Shown here one piece after another: positions 1 through 14,222 of a stretch of 22,633 nt of DNA. Made by a program: the position numbers and the translations under genes. This stretch comes from Paludibacteraceae bacterium. Lineage in GTDB: Bacteria; Bacteroidota; Bacteroidia; Bacteroidales; Paludibacteraceae. Positions within the stretch are counted from its first letter, which is position 1, and every line of letters starts with the position of its first letter. The stretch is taken from assembly GCA_947445425.1 (NCBI GenBank), contig CANFFA010000003.1, forward strand, positions 1 to 22,633, in the 5' to 3' direction. A model generated the notes under the pieces. The model saw only the letters and a list, made by a program, of their open reading frames with translations, was not told where the DNA came from and searched no databases.

Positions 1-144
1 TTATTGAGATATTGTGGAAAAGAGTAAAGTATCAATGGATACCTTTTAACGCATATCTATGCTTTCAAAACCTCAAAAGTAGTATAACAAACATACTGGC
101 CAATTACGGTAAAAAATACGACATTATATTCTAGCCATTACTTA
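1..144 (+). mobile_element. Right end of an IS630-type insertion sequence
   Basis: The window opens inside an insertion sequence. Seen: a transposase-like C-terminal reading frame stops at 132-134 and overlaps a terminal repeat at about 114-142. That repeat matches the right end of the element at 5410-5648 in 26 of 31 positions read inward, including AATACGACATTATAT and CCATTACTTA at identical spacing. The outer TA at 143-144 fits the TA target duplication known for the IS630/Tc1 superfamily. Directly after it the sigma-factor reading frame begins in mid-domain, so the IS appears to have inserted into that gene. The left end is outside the window. Assignment to IS630 rests on the protein fragment and the TA flank. 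Confidence 0.72.
3..134 (+). CDS. IS630-family transposase, C-terminal fragment (cut by window edge)
   Basis: Reading from base 3 gives 43 residues and a TAG stop. The segment begins IEILWKRVKYQWIPFNAY and ends ILANYGKKYDIIF. This resembles the C-terminus of IS630-family DDE transposases, where the last catalytic Glu sits in a NPIEILWR.IKYEW block followed by an AY..(W/F)..L segment and a closing NFG..Y.INF. The Glu of IEILW would be the third catalytic acid. The remainder of the gene lies upstream of the window. The stop falls inside the terminal repeat, as is common in compact IS elements. The truncated sigma factor downstream is in the same frame, 15 bases after this stop, so it could be transcribed from the transposase promoter. 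Confidence 0.72.
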   Translation: MEILWKRVKYQWIPFNAYLCFQNLKSSITNILANYGKKYDIIF

Positions 145-149
145 GCTAT

Positions 150-602
150 ATGGCTGAAGAGTTGGTTCAGCGTACTTTCATTAAAATTTGGGATACAAAA
201 GAAAAAATAGATCCAGATAAATCTTTTATTTCTTATTTGTGTACCATAGCTAAGAATATGCTATTGAATGAGTATGAACATCAGACTGTTAAGTTTGTGT
301 ACAGTGAATATATTAAAACGAATTCTACAATTGCTGACTATGACACAGAAAAAGAAGTGGATCGGAAATTGTTAGAAGATTATATTGATAAATTGACAGA
401 TAAGCTACCGCCTAAACGAAAAGAAATTTTTATTTTAAGTCGTAAAGAAGGGTTATCAAACAAAGTAATTTCAGAACGACTAAACATCTCTGAAAGCACT
501 ATTGAAACACAACTTTCAAAAGCGCTTTCATTTATGAAAAATGAATTAAGAAAGCATACTGAGTTAGTATTAATTCTATTAATCACATCAAGTCTTAAAT
601 AA
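150..602 (+). CDS. FecI-like ECF sigma factor, 5'-truncated
   Basis: Seen: 150 residues beginning MAEELVQRTFIKIWDTKEKI, the region 2.2 to 2.3 signature of ECF sigma factors. Region 2.4 follows (FISYLCTIAKNMLLNEYEH) and then a sigma-70 region 4 helix-turn-helix at about residues 80-135 (LPPKRKEIFILSRKEGLSN, ISERLNISESTIETQLSKA). The C-terminal hydrophobic tail is usual in Bacteroidota FecI-like proteins. Known: such proteins run about 180-200 residues, with 40-50 residues before AEELVQ that include region 2.1, which helps bind core polymerase. Here an in-frame TAG at 132 and the IS end at 143-144 leave no room for them. ATG 150 is simply the first methionine after the IS. Inference: the gene is disrupted and its product impaired or inactive. 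With the FecR gene downstream it would have been the locus regulator. Confidence 0.85.
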   Translation: MAEELVQRTFIKIWDTKEKIDPDKSFISYLCTIAKNMLLNEYEHQTVKFVYSEYIKTNSTIADYDTEKEVDRKLLEDYIDKLTDKLPPKRKEIFILSRKEGLSNKVISERLNISESTIETQLSKALSFMKNELRKHTELVLILLITSSLK

Positions 603-606
603 ATTA

Positions 607-654
607 TTTTTTTTGTTTTGAATAGTGGAAAATAAAAGTATAACTGTATATAAT
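607..654 (+). promoter_or_regulatory. ECF-type promoter motif, copy A (before fecR-like gene)
   Basis: Eight T (607-614), a 9-nt spacer, AGTGGAA (624-630), 13 nt, then CTGTATATAAT (644-654). The anti-sigma gene starts 49 nt downstream. The same parts at the same spacing occur at 5344-5391, 7481-7527 and 13160-13207, while the bases between them differ, which points to selection rather than recent copying. The GGAA-type -35 box and roughly 16-bp spacing are reminiscent of ECF promoters. Which protein reads it is inferred, not shown. Confidence 0.6.
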
Positions 655-703
655 TTATATAAATAATATCTGTAGTTATAAACAGTATATATATTGGAAT
701 AAG

Positions 704-1699
704 ATGAAAAGAGAAGAATGTTTGGAGATTTTTGACAGTTATATTCAAAATGCTGCAAGCAAAGAAGATGTAAAACGTTTAAGTACCTGGATCAGAAATG
801 ATAGTGGGATTTCTGTTTGGCTTGAAAATCAGATTTTAAGCTCCTCATCAGTCATGAGTCAGGAGGTTCAGATGCGCATGTTTGAAAATATTAAGGCGGG
901 AATAATTGTGCACCCCAATATGGATTCATCCACTACGAAAGGATTGAGAATTATTTTTAATGCGAGTAAATTGATGCGTATAGCAGCGATGTTTGTACTG
1001 CCATTTTTAACAGCAGCGGGCGTGTATTACTTTATGTTAAAATCTGGAACTACTCCAGTTCCTTACGTTATTGCTGTAGAACGTGGTCATAAAGCAATTT
1101 TAACACTGCCCGATGGAAGTAAGGCATGGTTGAATTCAGAATCAAAATTGACTTACTATTCAGATTATAATAAAAAGAAAAGGGAGCTACAATTGGAAGG
1201 AGAAGGTTATTTTGAAGTCGCTCATAATCCGAAGAAACCTTTTGTTGTAAAAAGTAATGATATGGCTGTCGAAGCACTGGGTACCGTTTTTGAAGTAAAA
1301 GCATATTCCGATGATAATTTAATATCTTCTGTATTAATGAAAGGAAAAATTCGGGTTACAACTCCTGGTGGGGTAGCTGTTTTAGCTCCTAACCAAAGGA
1401 TTTTATATGACAAAAAAACACATAAAATGAATCAGCAGGATGTTGCTCGGTCAGATGATTTTGCTAGCTGGAAGAATAATGAATTAAGGTTCGAAGATGA
1501 ATCTCTACAAGACATTGCTAAAAGTATTCAAAGAATATATAATGTGAAGATTGTATTTACAGATGAGAAAACGAAAAATTATCATTTTACAGGCACTGTG
1601 CCAAATGATAGTCTGGAAGGTGTACTTAACATAATTACAATGACATCACCAGTTTCTTTTCAAATAAATAACAAACAGGTAACTATATTTAAAAAATAA
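704..1699 (+). CDS. FecR-like anti-sigma factor
   Basis: Inner-membrane anti-sigma factor that would hold the ECF sigma factor and release it on a signal from a TonB-dependent transducer. Seen in its 331 residues: a cytoplasmic N-terminal segment with a FecR-type sigma-binding start (CLEIFDSYIQNAASKEDVKR), one membrane helix at about 91-111, a periplasmic FecR domain at about 120-215 with ERGHKAILTLPDGSKAWLNS and EGEGYFEVAHNPKKPFVV, and a C-terminal DUF4974-type domain at about 258-330 (LRFEDESLQDIAKSIQRIYN). Length is normal for Bacteroidota members and the frame is intact. The gene lies 101 bp after the damaged sigma gene and has its own motif copy, so it may still be expressed although its partner is broken. 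Confidence 0.93.
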   Translation: MKREECLEIFDSYIQNAASKEDVKRLSTWIRNDSGISVWLENQILSSSSVMSQEVQMRMFENIKAGIIVHPNMDSSTTKGLRIIFNASKLMRIAAMFVLPFLTAAGVYYFMLKSGTTPVPYVIAVERGHKAILTLPDGSKAWLNSESKLTYYSDYNKKKRELQLEGEGYFEVAHNPKKPFVVKSNDMAVEALGTVFEVKAYSDDNLISSVLMKGKIRVTTPGGVAVLAPNQRILYDKKTHKMNQQDVARSDDFASWKNNELRFEDESLQDIAKSIQRIYNVKIVFTDEKTKNYHFTGTVPNDSLEGVLNIITMTSPVSFQINNKQVTIFKK

Positions 1700-1901
1700 T
1701 TCTCTGTTTAACCAATTATTGCGTTTGAATAATCTATTTGCTATGTAACTTAAATGTGTTTTACAAGAGAAAAATGTCCAAACAGCTATTTGCTTGTTAT
1801 TTATCTTGCGTAGTATAGTGCAGCCAGATTTATTTTTATTGATTTTTGGAATAATTATATTTTACTTCCATTTGTAAGTGACTTTGTATCTGTAAAAAAT
1901 G

Positions 1902-1909
1902 TACTTTTG
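1902..1909 (+). promoter_or_regulatory. Possible Bacteroidota housekeeping -7 box before susC1
   Basis: TACTTTTG fits the Bacteroides consensus TAnnTTTG and lies 43 nt before the susC1 ATG. A TTTG at 1883-1886 could serve as the -33 element, but its spacing (15 nt) is shorter than usual, so the assignment is weak. The 253-bp gap 1700-1952 contains no copy of the AGTGGAA/CTGTATATAAT motif and no other structure I can support. Confidence 0.35.
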
Positions 1910-1952
1910 TGCTTTTTATGTTAGGACTTAAAACTAAAAGCTCAAGATTGCA

Positions 1953-4900
1953 ATGATGCAGACGATAATAAAACTAAATTTATTGAAAGTAATTTTTAAT
2001 AAAGGTTTATTATGTGTTTTTGCTACAATGTTTTCCATGCAATTACAAGCCCAAATTTCTATTGATGTTTCGAATCAATCTCTAAAGGATGTTCTGAGAA
2101 AGATTGAAGATATAAGTGATTATCGTTTTTTTTACAATGAAAAGTTAGAAGGTCTTAAAAAAAAATGCACAATAAAATGTCATAATTATAGCATTGAAAA
2201 AACAATGTACTTGCTTTTAGCCGAGACAGCAATAGACTATGAAATAAAGAATAAAACAATAATTGTACTTTTTAAAAGTGATAAAGTAATTTCAGATTCA
2301 AAACTAATTTCTGCCAATGTAAATGATGTAAATGGAGATCCTATCATTGGTGCCAATGTCATGGTTAGTGGGACTAAAACTGGAACAACTACAGATAGAA
2401 ATGGAAAGTTCACACTTTCAGTTACTGCTGATTCAAAATTGGTAATTAGTTATATTGGTCACGTAAAACGATTGGTGAATGTTTCTGATATAAATGGTAC
2501 TTCTATTCAATTAATTGAAGAAAGTGGACAGCTGACAGATGTTGTTGTAGTGGGGTACGGTAAGCAAAAAAAAGTGCATTTAACAGCTTCAGTAGCTTCC
2601 ATTTCGGCAAAAGAACTCGAATATAGGCCGGTCGTATCCATTTCTCAACTATTACAGGGGCTTACGGCAGGAGTGACTGTGATAAAGCAGGCGGGTAGCC
2701 CAGGGAATGACATTCCAATTATCAACATACGAGGCATTAATACCATCAATCCCGCCGAGAATGGTCCCTATTGTTTGATTGACGGAGCACCTGCTTACAT
2801 AGAGAATGTAAATCCGGCAGATATTGAATCAATCTCCATACTTAAAGATGCTGCAGCCACAGCTATTTATGGTAGTTCGGGTGCAAATGGTGTGGTGCTA
2901 ATTAACTTAAAAAAAGGAGTTCCCAGAAAAACTCAAATTAACTTCAATTGTTATCTTGGCAACCAACATCCTACAACAACACCAGAAACTGTTGATGCGT
3001 TAGACTTTATGAAGACACATAATCTTCAACAAACAAACAACGGACTACCTCTACTTTACTCTCCAGAATACATTTCCAAATACAAACGTTATTTAAGAAC
3101 ATCAGATTTGTACCCAAATACAAACTGGTTGAACGAGATTCTAGTTCCCAACTACATTCATAACGAAGATCTCTCAATTTCCGGTGGTAACTCTGATTTT
3201 GTAGCGAGATTTTCGTTGGGAAATTTAAAAAATACCGGGTTAATACCCAATACAAGTTACGACCGGAAGTCTATTCGTTTTAACTCCACTTATACGCCTT
3301 ATCAATTCCTCTCCTTTAATATTGCAATCAGTAATCTTTTTACCGAAAATATTCAACCTTCATATTCGACTTTAGAGATTTACAAAACAGCCAGTCTCTC
3401 TTCTGTTATGTCAAATGCACGTTTGCAAAATGGGAACTACGGTAGTGGGTATTTGTACAATGGAACGAATGCATTAGCGTTAGCCGAATTGGGAGGAGAG
3501 GATAAAAATAAGGGTAATAATGCGGGTATAGATTTAGGTTTTACATTGACGCCATTAAAAGGGTTAGACTTGTCCTTTATCTATTCCTATCGATCCAACA
3601 CCTATGATCGGACCATTTTCAAAGGTCAATATGATTGGTATAATGATAATGGTACTTCAGGTGGTATTTCTCCTGCTACCAACAGCTTCAAATCAAGTTA
3701 TATTTATTCATTGGCCAATCAATACAGAGTAACGCTGAATTATTGTAACAGAATAAATAAACATTATTTTTCAATTCTTGCTGGAATGGATAATTCCGAC
3801 ACGCATACAGGTAATTTGACAGCCGGACGGAGCAATTATTTTAATAATGATTTTCAACAAATAGATGCTGGAGATATAGCCACTGCTACAAATAGCGGAA
3901 AACAAGATGCTTATGCAAATATTTCTGGAATTGGTCGGATGAATTATGCCTATGATGATAAATATCTCTTTGAACTAAATGCTCGGAACGATCAATCTTC
4001 TATTTTTGCACGTGATCATAGAAATGCTTTTTTTCCATCATTGTCGGCTGGTTGGCGTCTATGTCAAGAGGATTTTATGGAAGATATAAAAACTTTATCA
4101 AATCTCAAACTTCGGTCTTCATGGGGTACTTCGGGCAGGGCTGTAGCACCCAATGGAGATTTTTATCCCTATTTAAATAAAGTTGAGATTTCGAATCAAG
4201 CAACAGTTATGAATGAAGCTTTACAAACTGGCGCTGCAGTTAGCCAATGGGCTGATGAAACATTTACCTGGGAAAAGACTGAAATGTATAATATTGGTCT
4301 CGACTTTGGATTATTCAATAATAGACTTACAGGAGAACTTGATTTATTTACCAAGAAGCTCACCGATGGGGTTTATTTAAGGCCAATGCCAGCTATTTCA
4401 GGTTTAACAAGAGCTTATACCAATTTTGTGGGCATGCAAAATCGTGGTTGGGAACTTTCGGTAAGATGGAACGATAACATTGGAAATTTAAAGTATGGCG
4501 TTGGACTTAATTTAGCAGACATTAAAAATGAAATTACGGATATTGGAGGGCTTGATCCTGTTTATACAAGTAACGGAAGTGCATACAGTGTTGGACATGA
4601 ACTTCTTGCTTATTATGTATATAAATCGGATGGATTATTGACCAAAGATGATGTTGCCGACCCAAATGTGCCGAAAATTTCAACCAAGGTGGTAGCCGGA
4701 AATGTAAAATTATTGGATATTAGTGGACCCAATGGTGTGCCGGATGGAAAGATTGATGCAAATGACCGCTATTATGTGGGGTCACGATTCCCGAGGTATC
4801 AGTTTTCAGCACCCATTCATTTGGAATGGAACGGTTTTGATGCCTATATCTTTTTGCAAGGTGTTGGTAAATCAACGGGTCTAATTAATCGGTATGCTTC

Positions 4901-5267
4901 CACGGTTAATTCCACAGCTACTCAGGGAAGTTATTTGTCGTGGGAGAAAGACACCTGGGATGCTGAAACTAATCCGGGTGGAAAAGTTCCCGCTTTCGGT
5001 GGAGATAATGGAGGATTGTCTGATTATTATATGAAAAGCAATGCCTATATTCGGCTCAAAACTTTGACTTTGGGTTATAGTTTAGCAGAAAAGATGCTGA
5101 AAAAAGTAGGAATTGATAAGCTTCGTTTTTATGTGTCCGGCGAAAATGTGTTGACCTTTACCGATTTCTACCAGGGGTTCGATCCTGAGATGCTGGTTAA
5201 TGTCAATTTATTTAATTACCCGAATGCTTCAACTTTTGTGGTGGGATTTAATATCGGTTTTAAGTAA
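1953..5267 (+). CDS. SusC-like TonB-dependent transducer with STN domain (SusC1)
   Basis: Outer-membrane 22-strand beta-barrel receptor that would import glycan fragments with TonB energy and signal to FecR. In 1104 residues: signal peptide 1-34 (ending LQAQ); STN/secretin-TonB N-terminal domain about 35-107 (ISIDVSNQSLKDVLRKIED); CarboxypepD-regulatory-like domain about 119-190 (DPIIGANVMVSGTKTGTTTD); linker DVVVVGYGKQKK, the SusC signature; plug about 205-320 with DAAATAIYGSSGANGVVLI; barrel to a terminal GFNIGFK. STN is the known mark of transducers paired with ECF sigma/anti-sigma systems, which fits the genes upstream. No SusD gene follows: a terminator lies 41 bp after the stop. The protein is colinear with SusC2 (16246-19320) from the carboxypeptidase-like domain onward and clearly paralogous. 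Confidence 0.95.
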   Translation: MMQTIIKLNLLKVIFNKGLLCVFATMFSMQLQAQISIDVSNQSLKDVLRKIEDISDYRFFYNEKLEGLKKKCTIKCHNYSIEKTMYLLLAETAIDYEIKNKTIIVLFKSDKVISDSKLISANVNDVNGDPIIGANVMVSGTKTGTTTDRNGKFTLSVTADSKLVISYIGHVKRLVNVSDINGTSIQLIEESGQLTDVVVVGYGKQKKVHLTASVASISAKELEYRPVVSISQLLQGLTAGVTVIKQAGSPGNDIPIINIRGINTINPAENGPYCLIDGAPAYIENVNPADIESISILKDAAATAIYGSSGANGVVLINLKKGVPRKTQINFNCYLGNQHPTTTPETVDALDFMKTHNLQQTNNGLPLLYSPEYISKYKRYLRTSDLYPNTNWLNEILVPNYIHNEDLSISGGNSDFVARFSLGNLKNTGLIPNTSYDRKSIRFNSTYTPYQFLSFNIAISNLFTENIQPSYSTLEIYKTASLSSVMSNARLQNGNYGSGYLYNGTNALALAELGGEDKNKGNNAGIDLGFTLTPLKGLDLSFIYSYRSNTYDRTIFKGQYDWYNDNGTSGGISPATNSFKSSYIYSLANQYRVTLNYCNRINKHYFSILAGMDNSDTHTGNLTAGRSNYFNNDFQQIDAGDIATATNSGKQDAYANISGIGRMNYAYDDKYLFELNARNDQSSIFARDHRNAFFPSLSAGWRLCQEDFMEDIKTLSNLKLRSSWGTSGRAVAPNGDFYPYLNKVEISNQATVMNEALQTGAAVSQWADETFTWEKTEMYNIGLDFGLFNNRLTGELDLFTKKLTDGVYLRPMPAISGLTRAYTNFVGMQNRGWELSVRWNDNIGNLKYGVGLNLADIKNEITDIGGLDPVYTSNGSAYSVGHELLAYYVYKSDGLLTKDDVADPNVPKISTKVVAGNVKLLDISGPNGVPDGKIDANDRYYVGSRFPRYQFSAPIHLEWNGFDAYIFLQGVGKSTGLINRYASTVNSTATQGSYLSWEKDTWDAETNPGGKVPAFGGDNGGLSDYYMKSNAYIRLKTLTLGYSLAEKMLKKVGIDKLRFYVSGENVLTFTDFYQGFDPEMLVNVNLFNYPNASTFVVGFNIGFK

Positions 5268-5307
5268 TAGAAAGATTTTAAGAGCCTGTTAAATAACGGG
5301 AAAATAA

Positions 5308-5351
5308 TAAAAGCAGTATGGTGACATTTTCTCACCTTACTGCTTTTTTTT
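5308..5351 (+). terminator. Rho-independent terminator after susC1
   Basis: Stem arms 5312-5324 (AGCAGTATGGTGA) and 5332-5344 (TCACCTTACTGCT) pair at 12 of 13 positions, with a 7-nt loop. Flanking A and T runs extend the stem and the right arm ends in eight T. It ends the susC1 transcript. Its T-tract also serves as the upstream part of motif copy B. Confidence 0.85.
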
Positions 5352-5391
5352 ATTCAGAGTAGTGGAATCAGTTTAATAAACTGTATATAAT
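5344..5391 (+). promoter_or_regulatory. ECF-type promoter motif, copy B (before GH29)
   Basis: T-tract 5344-5351, 9-nt spacer, AGTGGAA 5361-5367, 13 nt, CTGTATATAAT 5381-5391. The -10-like part is identical to copies A and C. It lies 308 nt before the fucosidase ATG. Removing the inserted element (5410-5648) would leave about 70 nt, in line with 49, 83 and 55 nt for the other copies. Confidence 0.6.
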
Positions 5392-5409
5392 TGTGCTCAG
5401 TCTTCAAAA

Positions 5410-5648
5410 TAAGTAATTGGAAGTAAATAATGTCGTATTATTTTAAAAACTCAAATTTAAAATGGAACGCGGATTTACACAGAAAATACGGATAAAAAAA
5501 CGGATGTATAATTGACTACGTCAATTGATTATGCACTCTAATCAAAAATGCTTGCATTTTTTTAAATCCGTTTTCAATCAGTCTAGACCGTGTAAATCCG
5601 CGTTCCATTTCCTTTTAAAATACGACATTATATCTGTCCCATTACTTA
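5410..5648. mobile_element. MITE-like element with IS630-type ends
   Basis: A non-coding element of about 235 bp (5412-5646) flanked by TA on both sides. Seen: terminal inverted repeats AGTAATTGG...AATGTCGTATT on the left and AATACGACATTAT...CCATTACT on the right, matching at 23 of 28 positions. The right end also matches the IS end at 114-142. Inside is a perfect 21-bp inverted repeat, 5460-5480 against 5590-5610, containing GGAACGCGGATTTACAC. Further pairs are AAAACGGAT with ATCCGTTTT, and AATTGAC-tac-GTCAATT. The whole region can fold into one long hairpin. Inference: a non-autonomous derivative mobilised by an IS630-family transposase, inserted between motif copy B and the fucosidase gene. 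The rest of 5268-5699 holds only the terminator, the motif and a short AT-rich leader. Confidence 0.75.
5460..5610. repeat. Inner 21-bp perfect inverted repeat of the MITE
   Basis: Arms at 5460-5480 and 5590-5610 are exact reverse complements over 21 bp and enclose a 109-bp loop with secondary inverted repeats. The arms are more GC-rich than the surrounding AT-rich DNA. This could be a separate, older palindromic element nested within the IS630-type ends, or simply the stem of one element. Confidence 0.75.
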
Positions 5649-5699
5649 AGAGACAGCTATCTATTTGTAATATATTATCAATCCATAAAATGATTTAGG

Positions 5700-7406
5700 A
5701 TGAAGAAATCAGTATTAGTTTTCATTTCACTTCTCTTTGTAATTGTCCACCTTAGTTCTCAAAACTTAGAAGGAAATAGGCATAGCTCCAAAGTCGATGA
5801 CGATAAAATGAAATGGTGGAAAGAGGCTAAGTACGGTATGTTTATTCACTGGGGAGTATATGCTGTACCTGCAGGAAAATGGGGCGAAGAGACCTGGTAC
5901 GCCGAGTGGATTATGAAAAATGCCAAAATTTCGAGGGCAGAGTATGCCAAGTTGGCTGAAAAATTCAATCCAACAAAATTCAATGCGGAAGAGTGGGTAA
6001 AGATGGCCAAAGATGCAGGACAGAAATACATTGTTTTTACTTCAAAGCATCACGATGGTATGGCAATGTTTAAATCGAAGGATCCCTACAATATTGTGGA
6101 TGCTACACCATTCAAACGAGATGTGGTTAAAGAACTCGCCGATGCCTGTCGGAAATATGATATTAAACTGGGTTTGTATTATTCGCAGGCGCAGGATTGG
6201 TATCATCCCGGCGGAGCCATTTGGGATAGTGTTGAGTGGGATAATTCGCACATTGGAAGTATGAATAAATATATTGATGAAGTAGCATTGCCTCAGGTAA
6301 AAGAAATTTTGTCTAACTATGGTGATATAGCAGTGCTTTGGTGGGATACACCGGTGGGTATGACTAAAGTGATGGCTCAGAAAGTAGACTCATTGGTTAA
6401 ACAATTTCCCAATTTAATAACAAACGACAGATTAGGTGGAGGTTTTGGTGGAGATCTTGAAACGCCGGAGCAGTTTATACCAGCCACTGGTTTCCCAGGG
6501 CGCAATTGGGAAGCATGTATGACGCTAAATGGTGATTGGGGGTACAATGCATGGAACGATCGTTGGAAAAACACGAAAGACGTAGTTCGGATATTGGTGG
6601 ATATTGCCAGTAAAGGAGGAAACTTACTGCTCAACGTTGGACCGAATGCTTACGGTGTAATACCCGAAGTTTGTCAGAATACACTTCGTGAAACAGGTGA
6701 ATGGCTCAAAATAAATGGAGAAGCCATCTATGGGGCACAAGCATCACCCTTCCCCTATTTATATTGGGGGCGTGCAACTCGCAAAGGACAAAAATTGTAT
6801 TTACACGTCTTTGACTGGCCTAAAGACGGAAAGTTAGTGGTTCCTTTGAGCAATGACCTTAAAAATCCAGTATTGTTGGGTTCACCGAAGACGAAATTAT
6901 CTGTCAAAAAAACAGGCGATCGTAATGTTATCTATGTCCCCGAATATGCACTTGATAAAAATGCTTCGGTAATTGCTATTGATGTTGTAGGTGAATTACA
7001 AGTGAATGCTTCACCAAGTGAGGGAAAACCAGTTACTGTAATTGGAACAAACAAACAATCGGCAACCGATTTATTGACAGACAATCAGCTAACTACAATA
7101 TGGACAGCCGAAAAAGATGAAAACAAGGTTGTACTGGAGCAGGATTTGGGTAGAGAGGAGAGTATTAGCGCTTCAGGTTTGCTCGAAAAAGGCAAACAAC
7201 ACGGTATGGAAAATCGCTTTAAACAAAAATACGAACTCCAATACTGGAATGGGAAAGAGTGGGTGAAATTAGTTGATGGTTGGACGAATGGTGGTGGAAT
7301 TGTCAAAACATTTGAACGGATAAAAGCCAGAAAATTCAGACTTCAACTCGAAGCGGAAAACGGCTTACCTTCATTGGCCGAATGGGTGTTGTACCGTGGT
7401 GAGTGA
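5700..7406 (+). CDS. Alpha-L-fucosidase, GH29, with C-terminal beta-sandwich domain
   Basis: Secreted retaining enzyme that removes alpha-L-fucose from glycans. Seen in 568 residues: signal peptide 1-20; GH29 TIM barrel about 36-345 with WWKEAKYGMFIHWGVYAVPA, FTSKHHDGMAMF (His117, His118), LGLYYSQAQDW and AVLWWDTPVG, whose Asp216 is the expected nucleophile; then GGNLLLNVGPNAYGVIPEV near the end of the barrel, a short beta-rich linker domain, and a C-terminal F5/8-type or galactose-binding-like domain at about 440-568. The acid/base residue cannot be fixed by eye. The architecture recalls the GH29-B (alpha-1,3/1,4) branch, but that is not proven. It appears monocistronic, with a terminator after it. 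Its leader carries the MITE, so expression may be altered. Confidence 0.93.
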   Translation: MKKSVLVFISLLFVIVHLSSQNLEGNRHSSKVDDDKMKWWKEAKYGMFIHWGVYAVPAGKWGEETWYAEWIMKNAKISRAEYAKLAEKFNPTKFNAEEWVKMAKDAGQKYIVFTSKHHDGMAMFKSKDPYNIVDATPFKRDVVKELADACRKYDIKLGLYYSQAQDWYHPGGAIWDSVEWDNSHIGSMNKYIDEVALPQVKEILSNYGDIAVLWWDTPVGMTKVMAQKVDSLVKQFPNLITNDRLGGGFGGDLETPEQFIPATGFPGRNWEACMTLNGDWGYNAWNDRWKNTKDVVRILVDIASKGGNLLLNVGPNAYGVIPEVCQNTLRETGEWLKINGEAIYGAQASPFPYLYWGRATRKGQKLYLHVFDWPKDGKLVVPLSNDLKNPVLLGSPKTKLSVKKTGDRNVIYVPEYALDKNASVIAIDVVGELQVNASPSEGKPVTVIGTNKQSATDLLTDNQLTTIWTAEKDENKVVLEQDLGREESISASGLLEKGKQHGMENRFKQKYELQYWNGKEWVKLVDGWTNGGGIVKTFERIKARKFRLQLEAENGLPSLAEWVLYRGE

Positions 7407-7444
7407 GACTGTTTGAAGAAGTAAGATTACAGATCTACTTTGAC

Positions 7445-7487
7445 AAAAAAAAACAGTAGTATGAAAACCTCATATTGCTGTTTTTTT
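7445..7487 (+). terminator. Rho-independent terminator after GH29 gene
   Basis: Stem CAGTAGTATGA (7454-7464) pairs with TCATATTGCTG (7470-7480) using two G-U pairs around a 5-nt loop. An A-run (7445-7453) precedes it and seven T (7481-7487) follow. As after susC1, the T-tract is shared with the next motif copy. Confidence 0.8.
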
Positions 7488-7527
7488 GTTCTGGGTAGCG
7501 AAAATTCAAGTATTAGCTGTATATAAT
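7481..7527 (+). promoter_or_regulatory. ECF-type promoter motif, copy C (before 7611 gene)
   Basis: T-tract 7481-7487, 9-nt spacer, AGCGAAA 7497-7503 (a variant of AGTGGAA), 13 nt, CTGTATATAAT 7517-7527. The first gene of the unit starts 83 nt downstream. It is the most divergent copy in the -35-like half but identical in the -10-like half. Confidence 0.55.
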
Positions 7528-7610
7528 TTGTTAGTTGAATTTCTTAAAAAAACGCGAGAAGGTATATTCTGAAAATAACAATATTTATTAATAAAAACAC
7601 AATTACCCCA

Positions 7611-9545
7611 ATGAGAACATTTTATCGATGCCCCAAAAGACTATTTTCTATCTCGTTTTTCATTCTAACCGCTTTCATTTTTTTCTTGCATTTGAATTCA
7701 AATGCAGCAGAAGCAGCATCTACGAAGCCAATGACCGTGCAAAATCCAGGAATAATTAAACATTCTGATGTTGTTTTTATGTACGACCAATTTAAAAACT
7801 ATAAAGACTTCGGTTGTACAGTGCTGGGTTGGGAAGGTAAAAAAGATAAAGTTTTGATTCAGAGTGCATACGACAATGGATTACGACTTTTTGCTGTTAG
7901 CATCGGACTGCTTACTGAGGTTACAGATATGATTAAGTTCGATGAGGAACACTGCTTAGAAGGGTCAGTTGTCGATTTTGGAGGAGAACCCTTTGTCTGT
8001 CCGTGGCTTTGGGATGCAAAATACAAAAACCATAGAGCTTACTGGTGGTGTACCAATACACCTTATGTGAAAAATTATTTTTCATCTACCATGGCACGCC
8101 GAATGACAATTGGTGCTACCGGTCTTCACGTGGACGATTTTAGAGGTGGTGCAGGAGCTTTGGCATATATTGGAGGATGTTTTTGCCCTCATTGTATGAA
8201 TGGATTCACGAAATGGCTTCAAGAGAAATCAGCTAGTGATAAATTGATAAAAACACAATTGACTGAGGCTAACGTACCCAAACTGGAACATTTTAATTAT
8301 AAAGAATTTCTGACCCAAAAAGGTTATAACAAAGAGAAGTATCTGAAAACTTATAAGACAGCCCCACTTTATTCATTATTTGCTGAGTATCAGATTACAA
8401 GTGCCGTAAATTTTGTCAGAGATTTACATGCTCAAGCAAAAAAAACATCTGGAAATCCCAATCTAACGTTAAGTGCAAATGATGATTTGACCGATGAGCA
8501 TGGAAGATCCATGGCTCCATATTTGACTTATTTATGTGCAGAACTTCAGCAACATCACGCAGAAACTTTAAGACCAACAAACGCTCCTATTTATTCCTAT
8601 AAATTAGGAGATGGTTTCCGTCGTCCGTTTACCAGTACAGCATCCGGTCATGATTGGGCCTTTATCAAGGTAAACAAAAAAGTTTGTTTAGTCCGCTCCT
8701 GGACAGCACTTTCTTATGCTATGGGACATAATTTTATGGCACCTGCTTATCAGTGGGCCTATACAGAGAAGCTCGGTACTCATTGGTATACTCCTGAAAA
8801 AGGAGATTTTGAAGGGATTCACCGTTTTATTCGCGAAAATGCAAGCTTGTTTGACAATTACGAACCGATAGCGCCCACCACCCTTATTTTCGACAATAAA
8901 GCCAACCGTTTGTCTCAAGATTCAGATGCAATAGTCAGAAAAATCAGCATCGAATTGGTGAAGAGGAATATCCCATTTAAGATTGAGATTGCTGGAGATG
9001 AGTTTCTGCCGCAATATAGAATTGGAAAAAAAGAGATAGGCAATGCACAAGCAGTGATAGTTGCCAAACAACCGCTGATGGATAAGGAACAACTAAAAGT
9101 GCTAGAATCGGCAGGGAAACAAGGTCGTATAGTTCGTTGGCCTGATGCTGTTAAATTAGAGTCACTTATCGGCACACCGATAAAGATTAGTGGTGGTGCA
9201 TCAGATAAAGATTCAATTATGATCTTTTTGCGTCAGAATCCAACGAATAAATTAGCACCCATTGTTATCCATGTTTTGAACAGGGATTATCAGGCAACAA
9301 CGGATATGATGCGTGAGAAAAAGGATTTTTACATTGAAATAGATAGCAAGATTCTGAATAACAGACAATTTACAAAGGCGAAATTCTACACTCCTGATTT
9401 ATCGAAAGCCACATTTGAAAAGTTTGGTCAGGCAGAAGGCACACACTTTACAACTGTTGAAAATTTGAAGGTGGAAAATGGGAAATCTGTGGTAAGAATT
9501 AAAGTGAATAAATTGAACGAGTGGGGAATTATTGCACTCGAATAA
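7611..9545 (+). CDS. Secreted TIM-barrel-like protein, putative new glycoside hydrolase
   Basis: I do not recognise a named family. Seen in 644 residues: a long signal peptide (about 1-33, hydrophobic FSISFFILTAFIFFLHL) and an N-terminal region to about 415 that looks like a glycosidase TIM barrel. That region contains ATGLHVDDFRGG (Asp175, Asp176) and GGCFCPHCMNGFTKWL, with Cys190, Cys192 and Cys195 followed by an aromatic-rich helix. The CxCxxC.xxFxxWL pattern recalls GH42-type and related clan GH-A enzymes. About 420-520 looks like a Rossmann or glutamine-amidotransferase-like domain (the position of the GH42 trimerisation domain), and the rest is beta-rich. It leads a unit with an esterase-like gene and a GH92 mannosidase, so a role in the same glycan is inferred. 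Catalytic residues are not established. Confidence 0.6.
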   Translation: MRTFYRCPKRLFSISFFILTAFIFFLHLNSNAAEAASTKPMTVQNPGIIKHSDVVFMYDQFKNYKDFGCTVLGWEGKKDKVLIQSAYDNGLRLFAVSIGLLTEVTDMIKFDEEHCLEGSVVDFGGEPFVCPWLWDAKYKNHRAYWWCTNTPYVKNYFSSTMARRMTIGATGLHVDDFRGGAGALAYIGGCFCPHCMNGFTKWLQEKSASDKLIKTQLTEANVPKLEHFNYKEFLTQKGYNKEKYLKTYKTAPLYSLFAEYQITSAVNFVRDLHAQAKKTSGNPNLTLSANDDLTDEHGRSMAPYLTYLCAELQQHHAETLRPTNAPIYSYKLGDGFRRPFTSTASGHDWAFIKVNKKVCLVRSWTALSYAMGHNFMAPAYQWAYTEKLGTHWYTPEKGDFEGIHRFIRENASLFDNYEPIAPTTLIFDNKANRLSQDSDAIVRKISIELVKRNIPFKIEIAGDEFLPQYRIGKKEIGNAQAVIVAKQPLMDKEQLKVLESAGKQGRIVRWPDAVKLESLIGTPIKISGGASDKDSIMIFLRQNPTNKLAPIVIHVLNRDYQATTDMMREKKDFYIEIDSKILNNRQFTKAKFYTPDLSKATFEKFGQAEGTHFTTVENLKVENGKSVVRIKVNKLNEWGIIALE

Positions 9546-9680
9546 CAATTTAAGAATAGGTTTGAATCGATATATTAGCAATCAATCATTTACACATAAA
9601 ATAGTCATGCACAAAATGCACTAAAGAGCGTGAAAATAAAGAGTTTAGATATATCACAACAAACACCTTTGCAGCCCAAT

Positions 9681-9721
9681 CATTGGCACATTGGCATATT
9701 ATTTAATTAGCATATTATTTA
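9681..9721. repeat. Short tandem repeats before the SGNH gene
   Basis: CATTGGCA is repeated directly (9681-9688, 9689-9696), and GCATATTATTTA occurs at 9694-9705 and again at 9710-9721, just before the ATG at 9725. These are low-complexity intergenic repeats. The gap 9546-9724 otherwise holds a possible TAGGTTTG -7 box at 9557-9564, but without a well-placed -33 element. Confidence 0.5.
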
Positions 9722-9724
9722 CGC

Positions 9725-10534
9725 ATGAAACTAATAAATTTTATTATCGCTGCTATCATAATACTTAGTAACAGCTTTCATCCATTATACAGCAATACAC
9801 CTCAGGTTGTAAATAATAAATTAAAAGCTAAGCTGCATAAACAGGTTGTTATTTTCAGTAAATCAAACATACAAATCGTTAACGCTGGAATACCAGGCAA
9901 TAACTCGTCAGACCTCCTCAATAGGTTTGATCAGGAGATTAATCAGGCAAAACCCGACCTGGCTATAATTATGGTCGGAACAAATGATATGCTGAATACG
10001 AAAAATCTGGTCACTTACAGCAATTATAGGTCTAACCTGAGAACGATGGTTACTCGTTTAAAAGACAAAGGGATAAAACCACTATTAATCTGTCCACCTC
10101 CTGCGGATACTGCTTATTTATACGAACGACATGACCGGAAGGCTTATGCAGAAATGCCCAATGAGAAAATGGATTCAGTGAGGAATATCATCAAAGAACT
10201 TGCTGTGGAAAATAGTTGTGGTTATGTAGATGTTTACGATGCTTTTGTAAAACTTAAAGTGCCTAAACACAATAGTGACGACTATATTCGAAACGAGATA
10301 AATAGCAATGCCAGAGATGGTGTACACCCCACTCCCAAAGGATATGATTTAATCGCCAAAGCGGTATTTAATTATCTGATAACAACTAAAACAGTGTTTT
10401 CTGGAATGAAGATTATCTGTTTAGGTGACTCGATAACCAATGGTGTGCATGTAAAAGGTGCTGGTACTGCAACCGGAGAAACGTATCCCGGAGTTTTGTA
10501 TTGTTTGTTGGATAGTTACATTCATAAAAATTAG
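9725..10534 (+). CDS. SGNH/GDSL hydrolase with circularly permuted motif order
   Basis: Probable secreted carbohydrate esterase (deacetylase-like). Seen in 269 residues: signal peptide about 1-23, then the SGNH blocks in unusual order. Block II is NAGIPGNNSSDLL (Gly55), block III is MVGTNDM (Gly85-Asp88) and block V is DGVHPTPKGYD (Asp198, His201). Block I, which normally opens the domain, is instead at the C-terminus: ICLGDSITNG (Ser236). It is followed by a TYPGVLYCLLDSYI helix that would normally lead into the block II strand. The N-terminal helix TPQVVNNKLKAKLHK could be a second copy of that helix. All four blocks are present once, so a functional permuted domain is plausible. It lies 44 bp before the GH92 gene, in the same unit. 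The alternative is a broken remnant of a tandem SGNH fusion. Confidence 0.8.
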   Translation: MKLINFIIAAIIILSNSFHPLYSNTPQVVNNKLKAKLHKQVVIFSKSNIQIVNAGIPGNNSSDLLNRFDQEINQAKPDLAIIMVGTNDMLNTKNLVTYSNYRSNLRTMVTRLKDKGIKPLLICPPPADTAYLYERHDRKAYAEMPNEKMDSVRNIIKELAVENSCGYVDVYDAFVKLKVPKHNSDDYIRNEINSNARDGVHPTPKGYDLIAKAVFNYLITTKTVFSGMKIICLGDSITNGVHVKGAGTATGETYPGVLYCLLDSYIHKN

Positions 10535-10578
10535 GTTTCCATCATAAAAGCAGACGCAATCAAATAATAAAATAGCAT

Positions 10579-12960
10579 ATGAATCAAACACGAATTGTCC
10601 GAAATGTAAAGCTGGTTTTAATGATTGGCATATTTTTAAGTTTTTTTCAATTCACCCCACTTCATGGTTCAAAACCTGAATTTGTAGTTGATTATGTCAA
10701 TACACTTATCGGGACTGCGCGAAAAACCGAAGGTGGCGCTTTACCTTCTGTAACTGTTCCATTTGGAAGAACTCACCTGGTGGCAATGACGAACCTGAAT
10801 TTCGTAGGTCAGATGCCTTATCATTACGAGGGTAAAAAGATTGTGGGATTTATGGCAACGCATCAGCCAGCGCCGTGGATGGGAGATTATGGTAATTTTT
10901 CGATTTTCCCAACCTTAGGAGAATCTATACCTTGCGATAACACCGATTTTTACAGACTTGATCACCAAAAAGAGATAGCCAAACCCTATTATTACAGTGC
11001 CGATTTGGTGCATGCCCATAATCAATATGCCATGAAGTCGGAGATTGCTGGCGTAGGTGATGGAGGAGTTTTCCGCTTTACATTTAATAAAAAAGGGGAG
11101 CAGGGTTTGTTTATTCAAGCTTCGCCAAAGTCTGTTAATGACTCGCTCAAATCTTATCTTGCACAATTTGGGTTGACTGAATCTTCTGCAAAAAAGACCA
11201 TTGGAAATGGATATATTCAAATTGATGTTGCGAACAATGCAGTGTATGGATATAATGCCAACCGACAGGATGCCGATTTAGGTGCTCCACTGGATAATTT
11301 CAAGGGCCATTTCTATATGCGGTTTAATAAGAAAATCAAATCGTTTGGGACCTGGGATTATCGTTACGGGAAAATGCCCAATAGAACTACACAGTTGGGA
11401 ATAAATGTAGGTGCTTATCTTGTTTTTGAAGAGGACGATCAAGCACTTGAAGTTCGTGTAGCGACCTCGTTTATCGATAAAATGCAGGTGATGGCAAATT
11501 ACAACAAAAAGATTGAAAACCGGAGTTTTGAATCGTTGGTAGAACAGACTAAACAGGTTTGGGAAAAAGAGTTATCCCGCGTGAGCGTAGATACCAAAAG
11601 CGAAAACGACAAAATTATCTTTTATACCGCTGTCTATCATACTTTATTATACCCACGAATCTTTTCAGAAGATGGAAGGTATTATAGTGCTTTTGATGAC
11701 CAAATTCATCCGGGAGATAGTTATACAGCTTTTTCCACATGGGATACCTTTCGAGCACAACACCCATGGTTGATACTGATTGCTCCAGAGCGCGTTGGAC
11801 CCATGATACAGGCCTTGCTCCAAAACTACAAAGAGGGAGGTTGGCTTCCCAAGTGGCCCAACCCAGGTGAAACAGCCATTATGATTGGATCACACACTGA
11901 TGCCATTATTGCAGATGCTTATATTAAAGGAATTCGTAATTATGATGTAAATCTAGCGTATGAAGCGGTTCGAAAGAATGCATTTACATTACCCTACGGA
12001 GATATTGGGGGTGATGATTTTTATTCTGACGTAACGATGTACAATGTAAAGAAACCGGAATTCAGAGCAAAAGATGCAGGAAATTACTGGTGGGACCGTT
12101 CTACGTGGAACGGAGGTGTTGAGTCGCGTGGTGGATTGACCCATTATCTGAAATATGGATTTGTACCGATTGACTACACATACGAGAGCGTAAGTCGCAC
12201 CATCGAATTTGGCGTAGATGATTACTGTATTGCACAAATGGCAAAGGAGTTGGGGAAAACAGACGATTATACCGAATTGATGAAAAGGGCGAAATACTAT
12301 AAGAATTTATACAATCCCCAAACTGGTTTTTTTGCTCCTCGCTACCACGACGGACGTTGGTTCGAGAAACCCAATGAAGGATTTACTGAAGGTTCACCCT
12401 GGACCTATCGCTTCGGTGCAATGCACGATGTAAATGGAATGGTAGAGCTGATGGGTGGTGAAAAGATTTTTACACAACGACTAGACAGCAACTTTGTCGG
12501 CAAACACTACCGTCACGACAATGAGCCAGGGCATCATTATATCTACCTGTATGATTGGGTGGGAGTCTATTCCAAAACACAAGCATTGGCTCGCGAAAAT
12601 TTTCGGAAGAACTATACTGCAGATCCGGCTTACGGAATCAATGGAAATGACGATTGCGGTCAAATGTCTGCCTGGTATCTCTTTACGGCGATGGGCTTTT
12701 ATCCCGTAGCACCTGCAAGTGGAGAATATGCTTTTGGTGCACCGCAATTTTCAAACATGACGGTCTACCTGGATTCGTCAAAATCCAAAAAACTGGAAAT
12801 CGTAGCACATGATTTTTCTGAAAAGAATCTCTATGTAAAAAAGGTAACCGTAAATGGAGTTTTGCAAAAAAGTCCTTTTTTGAAACACAATCAGATAAAA
12901 AATGGGGGACTGATAGAATATTGGATGGATGCGAAGCCTGCTTATACCTTTAAAAAGTGA
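10579..12960 (+). CDS. GH92 alpha-mannosidase
   Basis: Secreted, calcium-dependent inverting exo-alpha-mannosidase of family GH92, which in Bacteroidota trims mannose from N-glycans, mannans and similar polymers. Seen in 793 residues: signal peptide about 1-30; N-terminal beta-sandwich beginning VDYVNTLIGTARKTEGGALP and GRTHLVAMTN; an (alpha/alpha)6 barrel with YTAFSTWDTFRAQHPWLILI, HTDAIIADAYIKGIRNYD, DNEPGHHYIYLYDWVG (Glu649 region, expected general acid) and GNDDCGQMSAWYLFTAMGFY (Asp691/Asp692 region, expected general base), then YPVAPASGEYAFGAP. The length is typical. The linkage specificity cannot be read from sequence by eye. It is the last gene of its unit and is followed by a strong palindrome. 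Confidence 0.95.
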   Translation: MNQTRIVRNVKLVLMIGIFLSFFQFTPLHGSKPEFVVDYVNTLIGTARKTEGGALPSVTVPFGRTHLVAMTNLNFVGQMPYHYEGKKIVGFMATHQPAPWMGDYGNFSIFPTLGESIPCDNTDFYRLDHQKEIAKPYYYSADLVHAHNQYAMKSEIAGVGDGGVFRFTFNKKGEQGLFIQASPKSVNDSLKSYLAQFGLTESSAKKTIGNGYIQIDVANNAVYGYNANRQDADLGAPLDNFKGHFYMRFNKKIKSFGTWDYRYGKMPNRTTQLGINVGAYLVFEEDDQALEVRVATSFIDKMQVMANYNKKIENRSFESLVEQTKQVWEKELSRVSVDTKSENDKIIFYTAVYHTLLYPRIFSEDGRYYSAFDDQIHPGDSYTAFSTWDTFRAQHPWLILIAPERVGPMIQALLQNYKEGGWLPKWPNPGETAIMIGSHTDAIIADAYIKGIRNYDVNLAYEAVRKNAFTLPYGDIGGDDFYSDVTMYNVKKPEFRAKDAGNYWWDRSTWNGGVESRGGLTHYLKYGFVPIDYTYESVSRTIEFGVDDYCIAQMAKELGKTDDYTELMKRAKYYKNLYNPQTGFFAPRYHDGRWFEKPNEGFTEGSPWTYRFGAMHDVNGMVELMGGEKIFTQRLDSNFVGKHYRHDNEPGHHYIYLYDWVGVYSKTQALARENFRKNYTADPAYGINGNDDCGQMSAWYLFTAMGFYPVAPASGEYAFGAPQFSNMTVYLDSSKSKKLEIVAHDFSEKNLYVKKVTVNGVLQKSPFLKHNQIKNGGLIEYWMDAKPAYTFKK

Positions 12961-12986
12961 TAGTTTTTTTTGAAATTAGATCTTAT

Positions 12987-13120
12987 GCGAAAGTAATTTT
13001 ATTGCATTTGATACAAAAGAGCAAAGAATAAAGACATATTGCAATGTCTTTATTCTTTGCTCTTTTGTCATTTTATTCACTTGTCATTTTTGACTTATCA
13101 TAGCAAAAGTTTACTTTCGC
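12987..13120. repeat. Nested palindrome / terminator-like hairpin after GH92
   Basis: Seen: a perfect 24-bp inverted repeat, arms 13014-13037 and 13044-13067 around the loop ATTGCA, containing GAGCAAAGAATAAAGACAT. It sits inside an outer inverted repeat, GCGAAAGTAA (12987-12996) with TTACTTTCGC (13111-13120), which extends imperfectly inward. It probably ends the GH92 transcript, although no T-tract directly follows the inner stem. The symmetry over 134 bp also suits a small palindromic mobile element. The gap 12961-13262 holds this, motif copy D and an AT-rich leader. Confidence 0.75.
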
Positions 13121-13159
13121 AAAAAAGTCTATTGAATGGTTATCGCAATTAATTTCAAC

Positions 13160-13207
13160 TTTTTTTATTCCCGAATAGTGGAAAAACAAAGCTGAGCTGT
13201 AAATAAT
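13160..13207 (+). promoter_or_regulatory. ECF-type promoter motif, copy D (before the sus operon)
   Basis: Seven T (13160-13166), 10-nt spacer, AGTGGAA 13177-13183, 13 nt, CTGTAAATAAT 13197-13207 (one change from copies A-C). It lies 55 nt before the ATG at 13263 that opens the five-gene sus operon. Unlike copies B and C, its T-tract is separate from the preceding hairpin, so the T-tract seems to belong to the motif itself. Confidence 0.6.
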
Positions 13208-13262
13208 ATAACAGCATAAAAAAATATTAAGTACTTAAAATCTATAATTACAGGTATTGAGC

Positions 13263-14222
13263 ATGGAAAAGAAAATAGAAACACTACAATTACTTCAAAA
13301 TAGACGTAATTTTTTAAAAAATGCAGGAGCAATAGGTCTGGGGTTACTTGCCTCCCCTCTGCTGACAGATTTGTTTGCTCAAAACACCCCAAACATCCCA
13401 AAAAAGGAGGGAAAGTCAGACAAGTTAATTCCTTTTGAAGATCCGAATGCGCCGTGGACAATGACTCATTCCGGTCAGGATCAACATACAATAGCGGAAA
13501 TTGAGTCGGCATATAAAGAGATGAATCCCGTTCAATACTATCCAGCCTCTGATCGTTGGCTCAATTTACCCATTGTTTATAAAGCTTTAACTGGATCCAA
13601 CACAAAGCTTAGTATTGTAATGCTTGGAGATAGTATTGTTAATGATACCTACCGCTCACAGTGGGATAATCTTGTATTACAACCTGCTTATCCAAATTGT
13701 AAAATTTCTTGTGTAGCAATTGTGCGTGGCAGTACTGGTTGCTGGTATTATAAAGAAGGAAACAACATAGAAAAATATGTACTTCCTCATAACCCCGATC
13801 TACTAATCATTGGAGGGATATCTCAGAAAGATGATATTGACTCCATACGTGAGGTGATAAAAAAAGTACATTCTGCCCGTAAATGCGATGTATTACTGAT
13901 GACTAAAAGTTACGGAGAGGTGTCTGGAAAAGTTACCAAACGCTATGCCGATCCTTACCTCGATTATATACCTGGAAAGGTAGAAAATGGCTGGTCATAT
14001 GATATCCCTACCGACCCAAAAGATTACAGACGTCAATTATTAGAATTGGCTCAAGAAACAAAATCCGGATTTTTAGATATGACAGCACCATGGGGCACCT
14101 ATATTCGCCAGTCTGGAAAACCGCTCGATTACTTTAAACGAGATATCATACATGCCAATGTTAAAGGTGAGCAAATTATAGGACGAATTTTGGCCGCTCA
14201 TCTATCACCAGTAAAATTTTAA
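13263..14222 (+). CDS. SGNH hydrolase with Tat-type signal
   Basis: Probable periplasmic carbohydrate esterase. The frame is open from TTG 13257, but ATG 13263 is the better start and gives 319 residues. Seen: a twin-arginine-like signal NRRNFLKNAGAIGLGLLA (Arg14, Arg15) with cleavage near DLFAQ; a pro-rich spacer; block I IVMLGDSIVND (Ser124); VRGSTGCWYY in the block II place; IIGGISQKDD in the block III place, where the usual GxND is not canonical; and block V DIIHANVKGEQIIGR (Asp294, His297). The order is normal, unlike the enzyme at 9725. It is the first gene of the operon, 23 bp before GH127. The ester it cleaves is unknown; acetyl is the usual guess. Confidence 0.82.
   Translation: MEKKIETLQLLQNRRNFLKNAGAIGLGLLASPLLTDLFAQNTPNIPKKEGKSDKLIPFEDPNAPWTMTHSGQDQHTIAEIESAYKEMNPVQYYPASDRWLNLPIVYKALTGSNTKLSIVMLGDSIVNDTYRSQWDNLVLQPAYPNCKISCVAIVRGSTGCWYYKEGNNIEKYVLPHNPDLLIIGGISQKDDIDSIREVIKKVHSARKCDVLLMTKSYGEVSGKVTKRYADPYLDYIPGKVENGWSYDIPTDPKDYRRQLLELAQETKSGFLDMTAPWGTYIRQSGKPLDYFKRDIIHANVKGEQIIGRILAAHLSPVKF

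What the first reader, a model, noticed from the sequence alone, without database searches (positions are those of the whole stretch)
607..13207. Four-copy composite promoter motif defines a local regulon
T-tract / 9-10 nt / AGTGGAA / 13 nt / CTGTATATAAT occurs at 607-654, 5344-5391, 7481-7527 and 13160-13207, each 49-83 nt before the first gene of a unit once the MITE is discounted. Spacing is fixed while intervening bases vary. It is absent before susC1, the putative sensor, which instead has a housekeeping-like box. This suggests an ECF promoter specific to this PUL: the sensor is made constitutively, while the anti-sigma factor and the degradative units are induced. The T-tract doubles as terminator tail in two copies.
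Basis: partly seen in the sequence, partly recalled or inferred. Interest (0 to 1): 0.85.

Follow-up and report, generated by a model that had tools for sequence, protein, structure and literature searches.

The report
Private promoter of a sugar-gene cluster
A two-part DNA switch stands in front of several gene units of one carbohydrate-degrading gene cluster and recurs in related species that carry the same regulator, so it is very probably the private on-switch read by that cluster's sigma factor, although in this genome assembly the sigma-factor gene itself is split by a jumping element.

Summary
AGTGGAA-N13-CTGTATATAAT occurs four times at the stated places (0 of 100 shuffles reached four). 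A fifth, weaker copy lies on another contig of the same assembly. Twenty-one sites from seven genomes reduce it to GAR-TAGYGRAA-N13-CTGTAWA; the T-tract and the ATAAT tail are not conserved. In 48 same-genus genomes, 17 of 20 exact core matches fall in the 7 genomes with the orthologous FecR anti-sigma gene; the other 3 lie inside long open frames.

Best reading: the cognate promoter of the cluster's FecI-like ECF sigma factor, driving anti-sigma and enzyme units but not the sigma gene. Two corrections. susC1 lacks the motif here and in one relative, but four other orthologous loci carry it there and a fifth has a degenerate form, so a constitutive sensor is not a rule of the system. And the sigma gene is split here by an IS630-like element; a related MITE sits in the fucosidase leader.

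A second sigma cluster uses another word (ATGTGGG-N13-WWCGTC) with the same GTGG-N17-GT skeleton, hinting at a family-wide promoter code; five other clusters of three or more loci gave 0-1 hits each, so universality is not shown. No transcript start or sigma dependence was tested.

The parts
623..650 (+). Promoter copy 1 (TAGTGGAA-N13-CTGTATA) before fecR; T-run 607-614 just upstream
5360..5387 (+). Promoter copy 2 before the fucosidase gene; T-run 5344-5351 is the tail of a strong hairpin
7496..7523 (+). Promoter copy 3 (TAGCGAAA-N13-CTGTATA) before the 7611 gene; T-run 7481-7487 is the tail of a strong hairpin
13176..13203 (+). Promoter copy 4 (TAGTGGAA-N13-CTGTAAA) before the unit 13257-gene, GH127, SusC2, SusD2; T-run 13160-13166
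144..602 (+). 3' piece of the ECF sigma gene (TIGR02985); homology to intact relatives begins at 144; the 5' piece is on contig C89
1..144 (.). End of an IS630-like element that splits the sigma gene; window 1-149 is identical to one end of contig C89
   Evidence: IS630 name recalled
704..1699 (+). FecR anti-sigma gene
1902..1909 (+). TACTTTTG, housekeeping-like box before susC1
1953..5267 (+). susC1, TonB-dependent receptor with STN domain (presumed transducer)
5410..5648 (.). MITE between promoter copy 2 and the fucosidase gene, TA at both ends, ends like those of the IS630-like element
5700..7406 (+). Alpha-L-fucosidase family (PF01120) gene
7611..9545 (+). Protein of 644 aa without Pfam or NCBIfam match
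9725..10534 (+). GDSL/SGNH hydrolase gene
10579..12960 (+). GH92 gene
13257..14222 (+). Protein of 321 aa without Pfam or NCBIfam match (orthologue in G010 also has the promoter)
14246..16213 (+). GH127-family gene
16246..19320 (+). susC2
19342..21150 (+). susD2

Best explanation
The motif is the cognate promoter of the FecI-like ECF sigma factor at the head of this PUL: -35 element (GAR)TAGYGRAA, rigid 13-nt spacer, -10 element CTGTAWA. A glycan bound by SusC1 would signal through FecR, free the sigma, and sigma-RNA polymerase would then fire at fecR (so raising its own antagonist), the fucosidase, the 7611 gene and the GH127-SusC2-SusD2 unit. The sigma gene is not a target. SHOWN: motif, spacing, exclusivity in the assembly, recurrence in seven genomes at the same genes, co-occurrence with the orthologous locus, absence upstream of sigma, and the split sigma gene here. 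INFERRED: binding by this sigma, start site, glycan signal, feedback.
For: Four copies, 0 of 100 shuffles; no other match at 2 or fewer mismatches in the assembly. Present upstream of fecR in all six orthologous loci read (5 exact, 1 with one mismatch) and at susC in four. 17 of 20 exact core matches in 48 same-genus genomes lie in the 7 with the FecR orthologue (15 before an ORF, 1 at a contig end, 1 inside an ORF); 3 in the other 41 are inside open frames of 251, 770 and 1021 codons; reversed control 5. Columns not used to pick the sites are conserved too: A two bases before CTGTA in 21 of 21, G at -3 in 15, A at -2 in 17, G at -1 in 14. Spacer bases vary. No TAnnTTTG in the -10 area of 21 sites. 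A second sigma cluster shows its own word at the same two genes with the same skeleton.
Against: No transcript start, binding or genetic data. The sites were collected with the core, so its own conservation is partly by construction. At one mismatch the core gives 60 hits in the 7 genomes against 30 for the reversed control, many of them probably chance. The sigma gene is split in this assembly, so the promoter may be idle here. A B. faecis locus matching a published mapped 5' end showed no clear motif.
Confidence: 0.82

Rival explanations
1. The motif is the binding site of a dedicated activator, with a different sigma factor starting transcription nearby.
For: Two conserved boxes at fixed spacing would also suit a dimeric activator; no binding data exist.
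Against: No regulator gene other than sigma and FecR was found among the Pfam and NCBIfam matches of the window genes. The boxes are not repeats of each other, sit 22-90 nt before most start codons and have no TAnnTTTG box of the housekeeping kind in the -10 area (0 of 21). The word changes with the sigma cluster.
Confidence: 0.1
2. The motif is real and sigma-linked, but in this organism it is a relic: the insertion has silenced the sigma gene and with it the regulon.
For: The sigma gene is in two pieces on contigs that overlap by 149 identical bases, with HTH and DDE_3 transposase ORFs between them; no intact copy was found in the assembly.
Against: Compatible with the best explanation; all copies are still well preserved. 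The assembly is 76% complete and contigs break at the insertion, so an intact allele in the population is not excluded; the 3' piece keeps sigma region 4 and part of region 2.
Confidence: 0.4
3. The copies are remnants of a mobile or duplicated leader sequence rather than selected promoters.
For: A MITE and an IS element are active in the locus.
Against: Spacer and flanks differ between copies while both boxes stay; the same sites recur in other species; the motif is not part of the MITE, which lies downstream of copy 2.
Confidence: 0.03

Closest known systems
FecI/FecR/FecA-type cell-surface signalling with FecI-like ECF sigma factors, including the PUL-linked sigma/anti-sigma pairs of Bacteroides
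   Same: ECF sigma, FecR and a TonB-dependent receptor with STN domain side by side; the sigma gene carries no copy of the motif, as FecI-like factors are said not to autoregulate (PMC8103513, passage).
   Different: The anti-sigma gene itself and several enzyme units carry the promoter; in E. coli, from recall, FecI serves the transport operon. The promoter word differs.
ECF promoters described in Bacteroidetes (F. psychrophilum SM6, P. gingivalis SigP, B. thetaiotaomicron SigH-1)
   Different: Those concern T9SS or stress genes, not a PUL-internal regulon; the SigP consensus in PMC4800418 (passage) is a different string; the SigW-1 motif for a PUL subset was reported as non-significant (PMC12596196, passages).
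Housekeeping sigma-ABfr promoter (TAnnTTTG, TTTG near -33)
   Same: A TAnnTTTG box precedes susC1 in the window and G010.
   Different: 0 of 21 motif sites have TAnnTTTG in the -10 area.

Membership tests
FecI-like ECF sigma (TIGR02985, Bacteroides expansion family 1) | Sigma region 2 and region 4 domains; family model above cut-off | tested here: met
   3' piece alone: Sigma70_r4_2 and Sigma70_r2; TIGR02985 127.1 bits, cut-off 126.4
FecI-like ECF sigma (TIGR02985, Bacteroides expansion family 1) | Intact reading frame in this genome | tested here: not met
   Gene split between C89 and the window by a transposase-bearing element
FecIRA-type cell-surface signalling | Adjacent FecR and TonB-dependent receptor with STN domain | tested here: met
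FecIRA-type cell-surface signalling | Signal passes from receptor through FecR to sigma | not testable with these tools
   needs genetics
ECF-type promoter | Two boxes at rigid spacing upstream of target genes | tested here: met
   13-nt spacer in 21 sites; position before genes. Spacing was fixed by the search pattern; no other spacing was searched for this word
ECF-type promoter | GGAAC-like -35 and GTC-like -10 of well-studied ECF promoters (recalled) | tested here: inconclusive
   GRAA and GTA here; GTGGG and CGTC in the second cluster
ECF-type promoter | Transcription starts there and depends on the sigma | not testable with these tools
   no RNA or genetic data
Housekeeping sigma-ABfr promoter | TAnnTTTG at -7 | tested here: not met
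   0 of 21 sites
IS630-like element (inserted in sigma) | DDE_3 transposase, inverted ends, TA at both junctions | tested here: met
   the criteria themselves are recalled

The most novel reading that the evidence does not exclude
PUL-linked FecI-like sigma factors of Bacteroidales share one promoter skeleton (two bases, GG, 17 nt, GT) and differ in the surrounding letters by sigma sub-family, so that each PUL reads its own word. The words can be found without autoregulation, by comparing the fecR and susC leaders of one locus, which would turn many orphan PUL sigma factors into readable, largely non-crossing regulons.
Probability: 0.45. Interest if true: 0.75.

Novelty: new member of a known kind. 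Interest (0 to 1): 0.6.

Why it matters
Nearly half of the 50 ECF sigma factors of B. thetaiotaomicron lie in PULs (PMC12596196, passage), yet ECF promoters were called challenging to predict (PMC3878776, passage), no motif was known for any B. thetaiotaomicron ECF in 2020 (PMC7366714, passage), and prediction elsewhere leans on autoregulated sigmas, which FecI-like ones are not (PMC8103513, passages). Here a cognate promoter is defined to the base by comparing species, and a second sigma cluster yields a second word with the same skeleton. That gives testable regulon predictions and candidate orthogonal promoters. The locus also shows regulatory change: the transducer gene without its sigma promoter, and mobile elements in the sigma gene and in one leader.

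Tried and rejected
T-tract as part of the motif: rejected; a run of 5 or more T in 14 of 21 sites, at varying positions; two of the four window T-runs are tails of strong hairpins, two are not. CTGTATATAAT as one 11-mer: rejected, 3 of 21.

Test against a published 5' end (B. thetaiotaomicron PUL24, 291 nt upstream of BT1875; PMC11501099, passages): B. thetaiotaomicron was not among the 80 loci kept; the B. faecis counterpart (L265) shows no clear motif there. A negative, though that end is not proven to be a sigma start.

The second word gave 30 exact hits in 100 genomes while its reversed control gave 59: the count is no evidence, only the positions are (11 at fecR/susC, 3 before other ORFs with signal-like starts judged by eye, 15 in open frames of 189 or more codons, 1 unclear). 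Four of the 11 served to write the pattern.

Of eight one-mismatch core hits in G010 only three were read in context: C732 lies 54 nt before a secreted-looking protein and was counted, C512 lies 67 nt before a 301-codon ORF and was not, C163 has no near gene. The promoter/terminator scan of 5250-7560 found nothing above shuffles and missed both hairpins.

Full report
CHECK OF THE OBSERVATION. AGTGGAA-N13-CTGTATATAAT has four matches in the window at up to 3 mismatches (624, 5361, 7497, 13177; 0, 0, 2 and 1 mismatches) against 0.06 expected; none of 100 shuffles had four. The T-runs start at 607, 5344, 7481 and 13160. In the own assembly (2.52 Mb, 381 contigs, 76% complete) nothing else matches at 2 or fewer mismatches, and three 3-mismatch hits equal the control of 3. 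The window is the whole of contig C3.

THE LOCUS. On the + strand: part of an ECF sigma gene, FecR, SusC with STN domain, fucosidase family, a 644-aa protein without a family, GDSL/SGNH hydrolase, GH92, a 321-aa protein without a family, GH127 family, SusC2, SusD2 and a Fib_succ_major protein. It is a PUL with a FecIRA-like head; the sigma piece matches TIGR02985.

COMPARISON BETWEEN SPECIES. Of 100 relatives searched, 76 have some match to the FecR protein. I treat as orthologues the five same-genus hits of 56-61% identity (G046, G010, G040, G002, G039) and one of 44% (G033); others are at 39% or less. All six loci carry the core motif upstream of fecR (five exact, G039 with one mismatch), and G046, G040, G002 and G033 also upstream of susC; G039 has a degenerate form there. 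G010 has six exact core matches (fecR; fucosidase orthologue; one at a contig end that resembles copy 3; an FAD oxidoreductase; a gene cut by a contig edge; the orthologue of the 13257 gene) and a one-mismatch site before a 587-aa protein. The FAD-oxidoreductase site has a counterpart in the own genome on contig C142 (1 mismatch), so the own regulon has probably five promoters. Exact sites beyond fecR and susC were seen in G000 and G010; the one in G039 is inside an ORF.

THE MOTIF REFINED. Aligning 21 sites from 7 genomes gives GAR-TAGYGRAA-N11-A-R-CTGTAWA. The sites were chosen by the core, so the core's own conservation is partly by construction; columns outside it are independent: A two bases before CTGTA in 21 of 21, G at -3 in 15, A at -2 in 17, G at -1 in 14. 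T-runs of 5 or more occur in 14 of 21; the full 11-mer CTGTATATAAT in 3 of 21. The T-runs of copies 2 and 3 are tails of strong hairpins (-19.3 and -19.6 kcal/mol, z -6.3 and -7.9); those of copies 1 and 4 are not (z -0.2 and -1.1; a strong hairpin lies further up at 13010-13075).

CO-OCCURRENCE WITH THE REGULATOR. In 48 same-genus genomes TAGYGRAA-N13-CTGTAWA occurs exactly 20 times: 17 in the 7 genomes with the orthologous FecR (15 before an ORF, 1 at a contig end, 1 inside an ORF in G039) and 3 in the other 41, all inside open frames (251, 1021 and 770 codons); the reversed control has 5. At one mismatch the 7 genomes give 60 hits against 30 for the control. The motif was not found upstream of sigma in six orthologous loci (400 nt available in five, 42 nt in one) nor on C89 (best 4-5 mismatches).

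SUSC1. It has TACTTTTG, and G010 TATATTTG at a similar distance; these fit TAnnTTTG, but the partner box is not clear. Since four other orthologous loci use the ECF motif at susC, a sensor outside the sigma's control is not a rule of this system; it goes with the two genomes that show the larger regulon (inference from few genomes, several incomplete).

THE SIGMA GENE IS INTERRUPTED. Homology to the intact relatives begins at window 144. The missing part (residues 5-48 of the G010 protein, 64% identical) is on contig C89:1071-1202, minus strand. C89 and the window share 149 identical bases. Between the pieces lie an HTH ORF and a DDE_3 transposase ORF, with ends TAAGTAAT/ATTACTTA and TA at both junctions. 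I call it IS630-like from recall of that family. The MITE at 5410-5648 has matching ends and 16 further copies over at least 200 of 236 bases. Whether all cells carry the sigma insertion cannot be told; the search found no intact copy in this assembly.

The second word, searched without regard to position in 100 genomes, gave 30 exact hits against 59 for the reversed control, so the number is no evidence. The positions are: 11 lie at fecR or susC of loci listed, 3 before other ORFs with signal-like starts, 15 inside open frames of 189 or more codons, 1 unclear. Leaving out the four used to write the pattern, 7 of 26 lie at fecR/susC, against an assumed generous chance of 0.00125 each (3e-15). 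Both words read GTGG, 17 nt, GT. A third cluster (L033, L034, L037) has AAGG or ACGG, 17 nt, GT upstream of fecR. Recognition-helix residues differ between clusters (SESTIETQL, SERTVEVRI, SENTVESQL), which is only suggestive.

LITERATURE. Nine searches of the held library listed no paper that I recognised as giving a PUL-specific ECF promoter consensus. Seen as passages: PMC12596196, PMC3878776, PMC11501099, PMC9249621, PMC4800418, PMC7366714, PMC9723704, PMC13088901; PMC8103513 as passages and part 1 of 2 of one section. The EcfO paper is not held. PMC12596196 reports a conserved motif for SigH-1 and a non-significant one for SigW-1 in a PUL subset. Most subscription papers and supplements were out of reach, so absence from print is not shown.

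VERDICT. A real, regulator-linked motif, very probably the cognate ECF promoter of this PUL, with a corrected consensus, a somewhat larger regulon, a split sigma gene in this assembly and a hint of a family-wide code.

Noticed in passing
window 1-144 and contig C89 (L322 1-1077): IS630-like element inside the sigma gene, with HTH and DDE_3 ORFs and TA at both junctions.
   Followed up: partly
window 5410-5648: MITE with the same ends as that element; 16 further copies over at least 200 of 236 bases in the assembly.
   Followed up: partly
L105 (contig C142), 5402 on the minus strand: Fifth probable promoter copy before an FAD-dependent oxidoreductase gene, away from the window.
   Followed up: partly
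L343, L345, L354 (G018, G008): The second word ATGTGGG-N13-AACGTC stands 65-93 nt before ORFs with signal-like starts away from fecR/susC: candidate regulon members of the second sigma cluster.
   Followed up: no
window 1902-1909 and G010 susC leader (L056): susC1 has a TAnnTTTG box where related loci have the ECF motif: possible promoter replacement.
   Followed up: partly
window 13010-13075: Very strong hairpin (-35.5 kcal/mol, z -11.2) between GH92 and promoter copy 4, possibly a two-way terminator.
   Followed up: no
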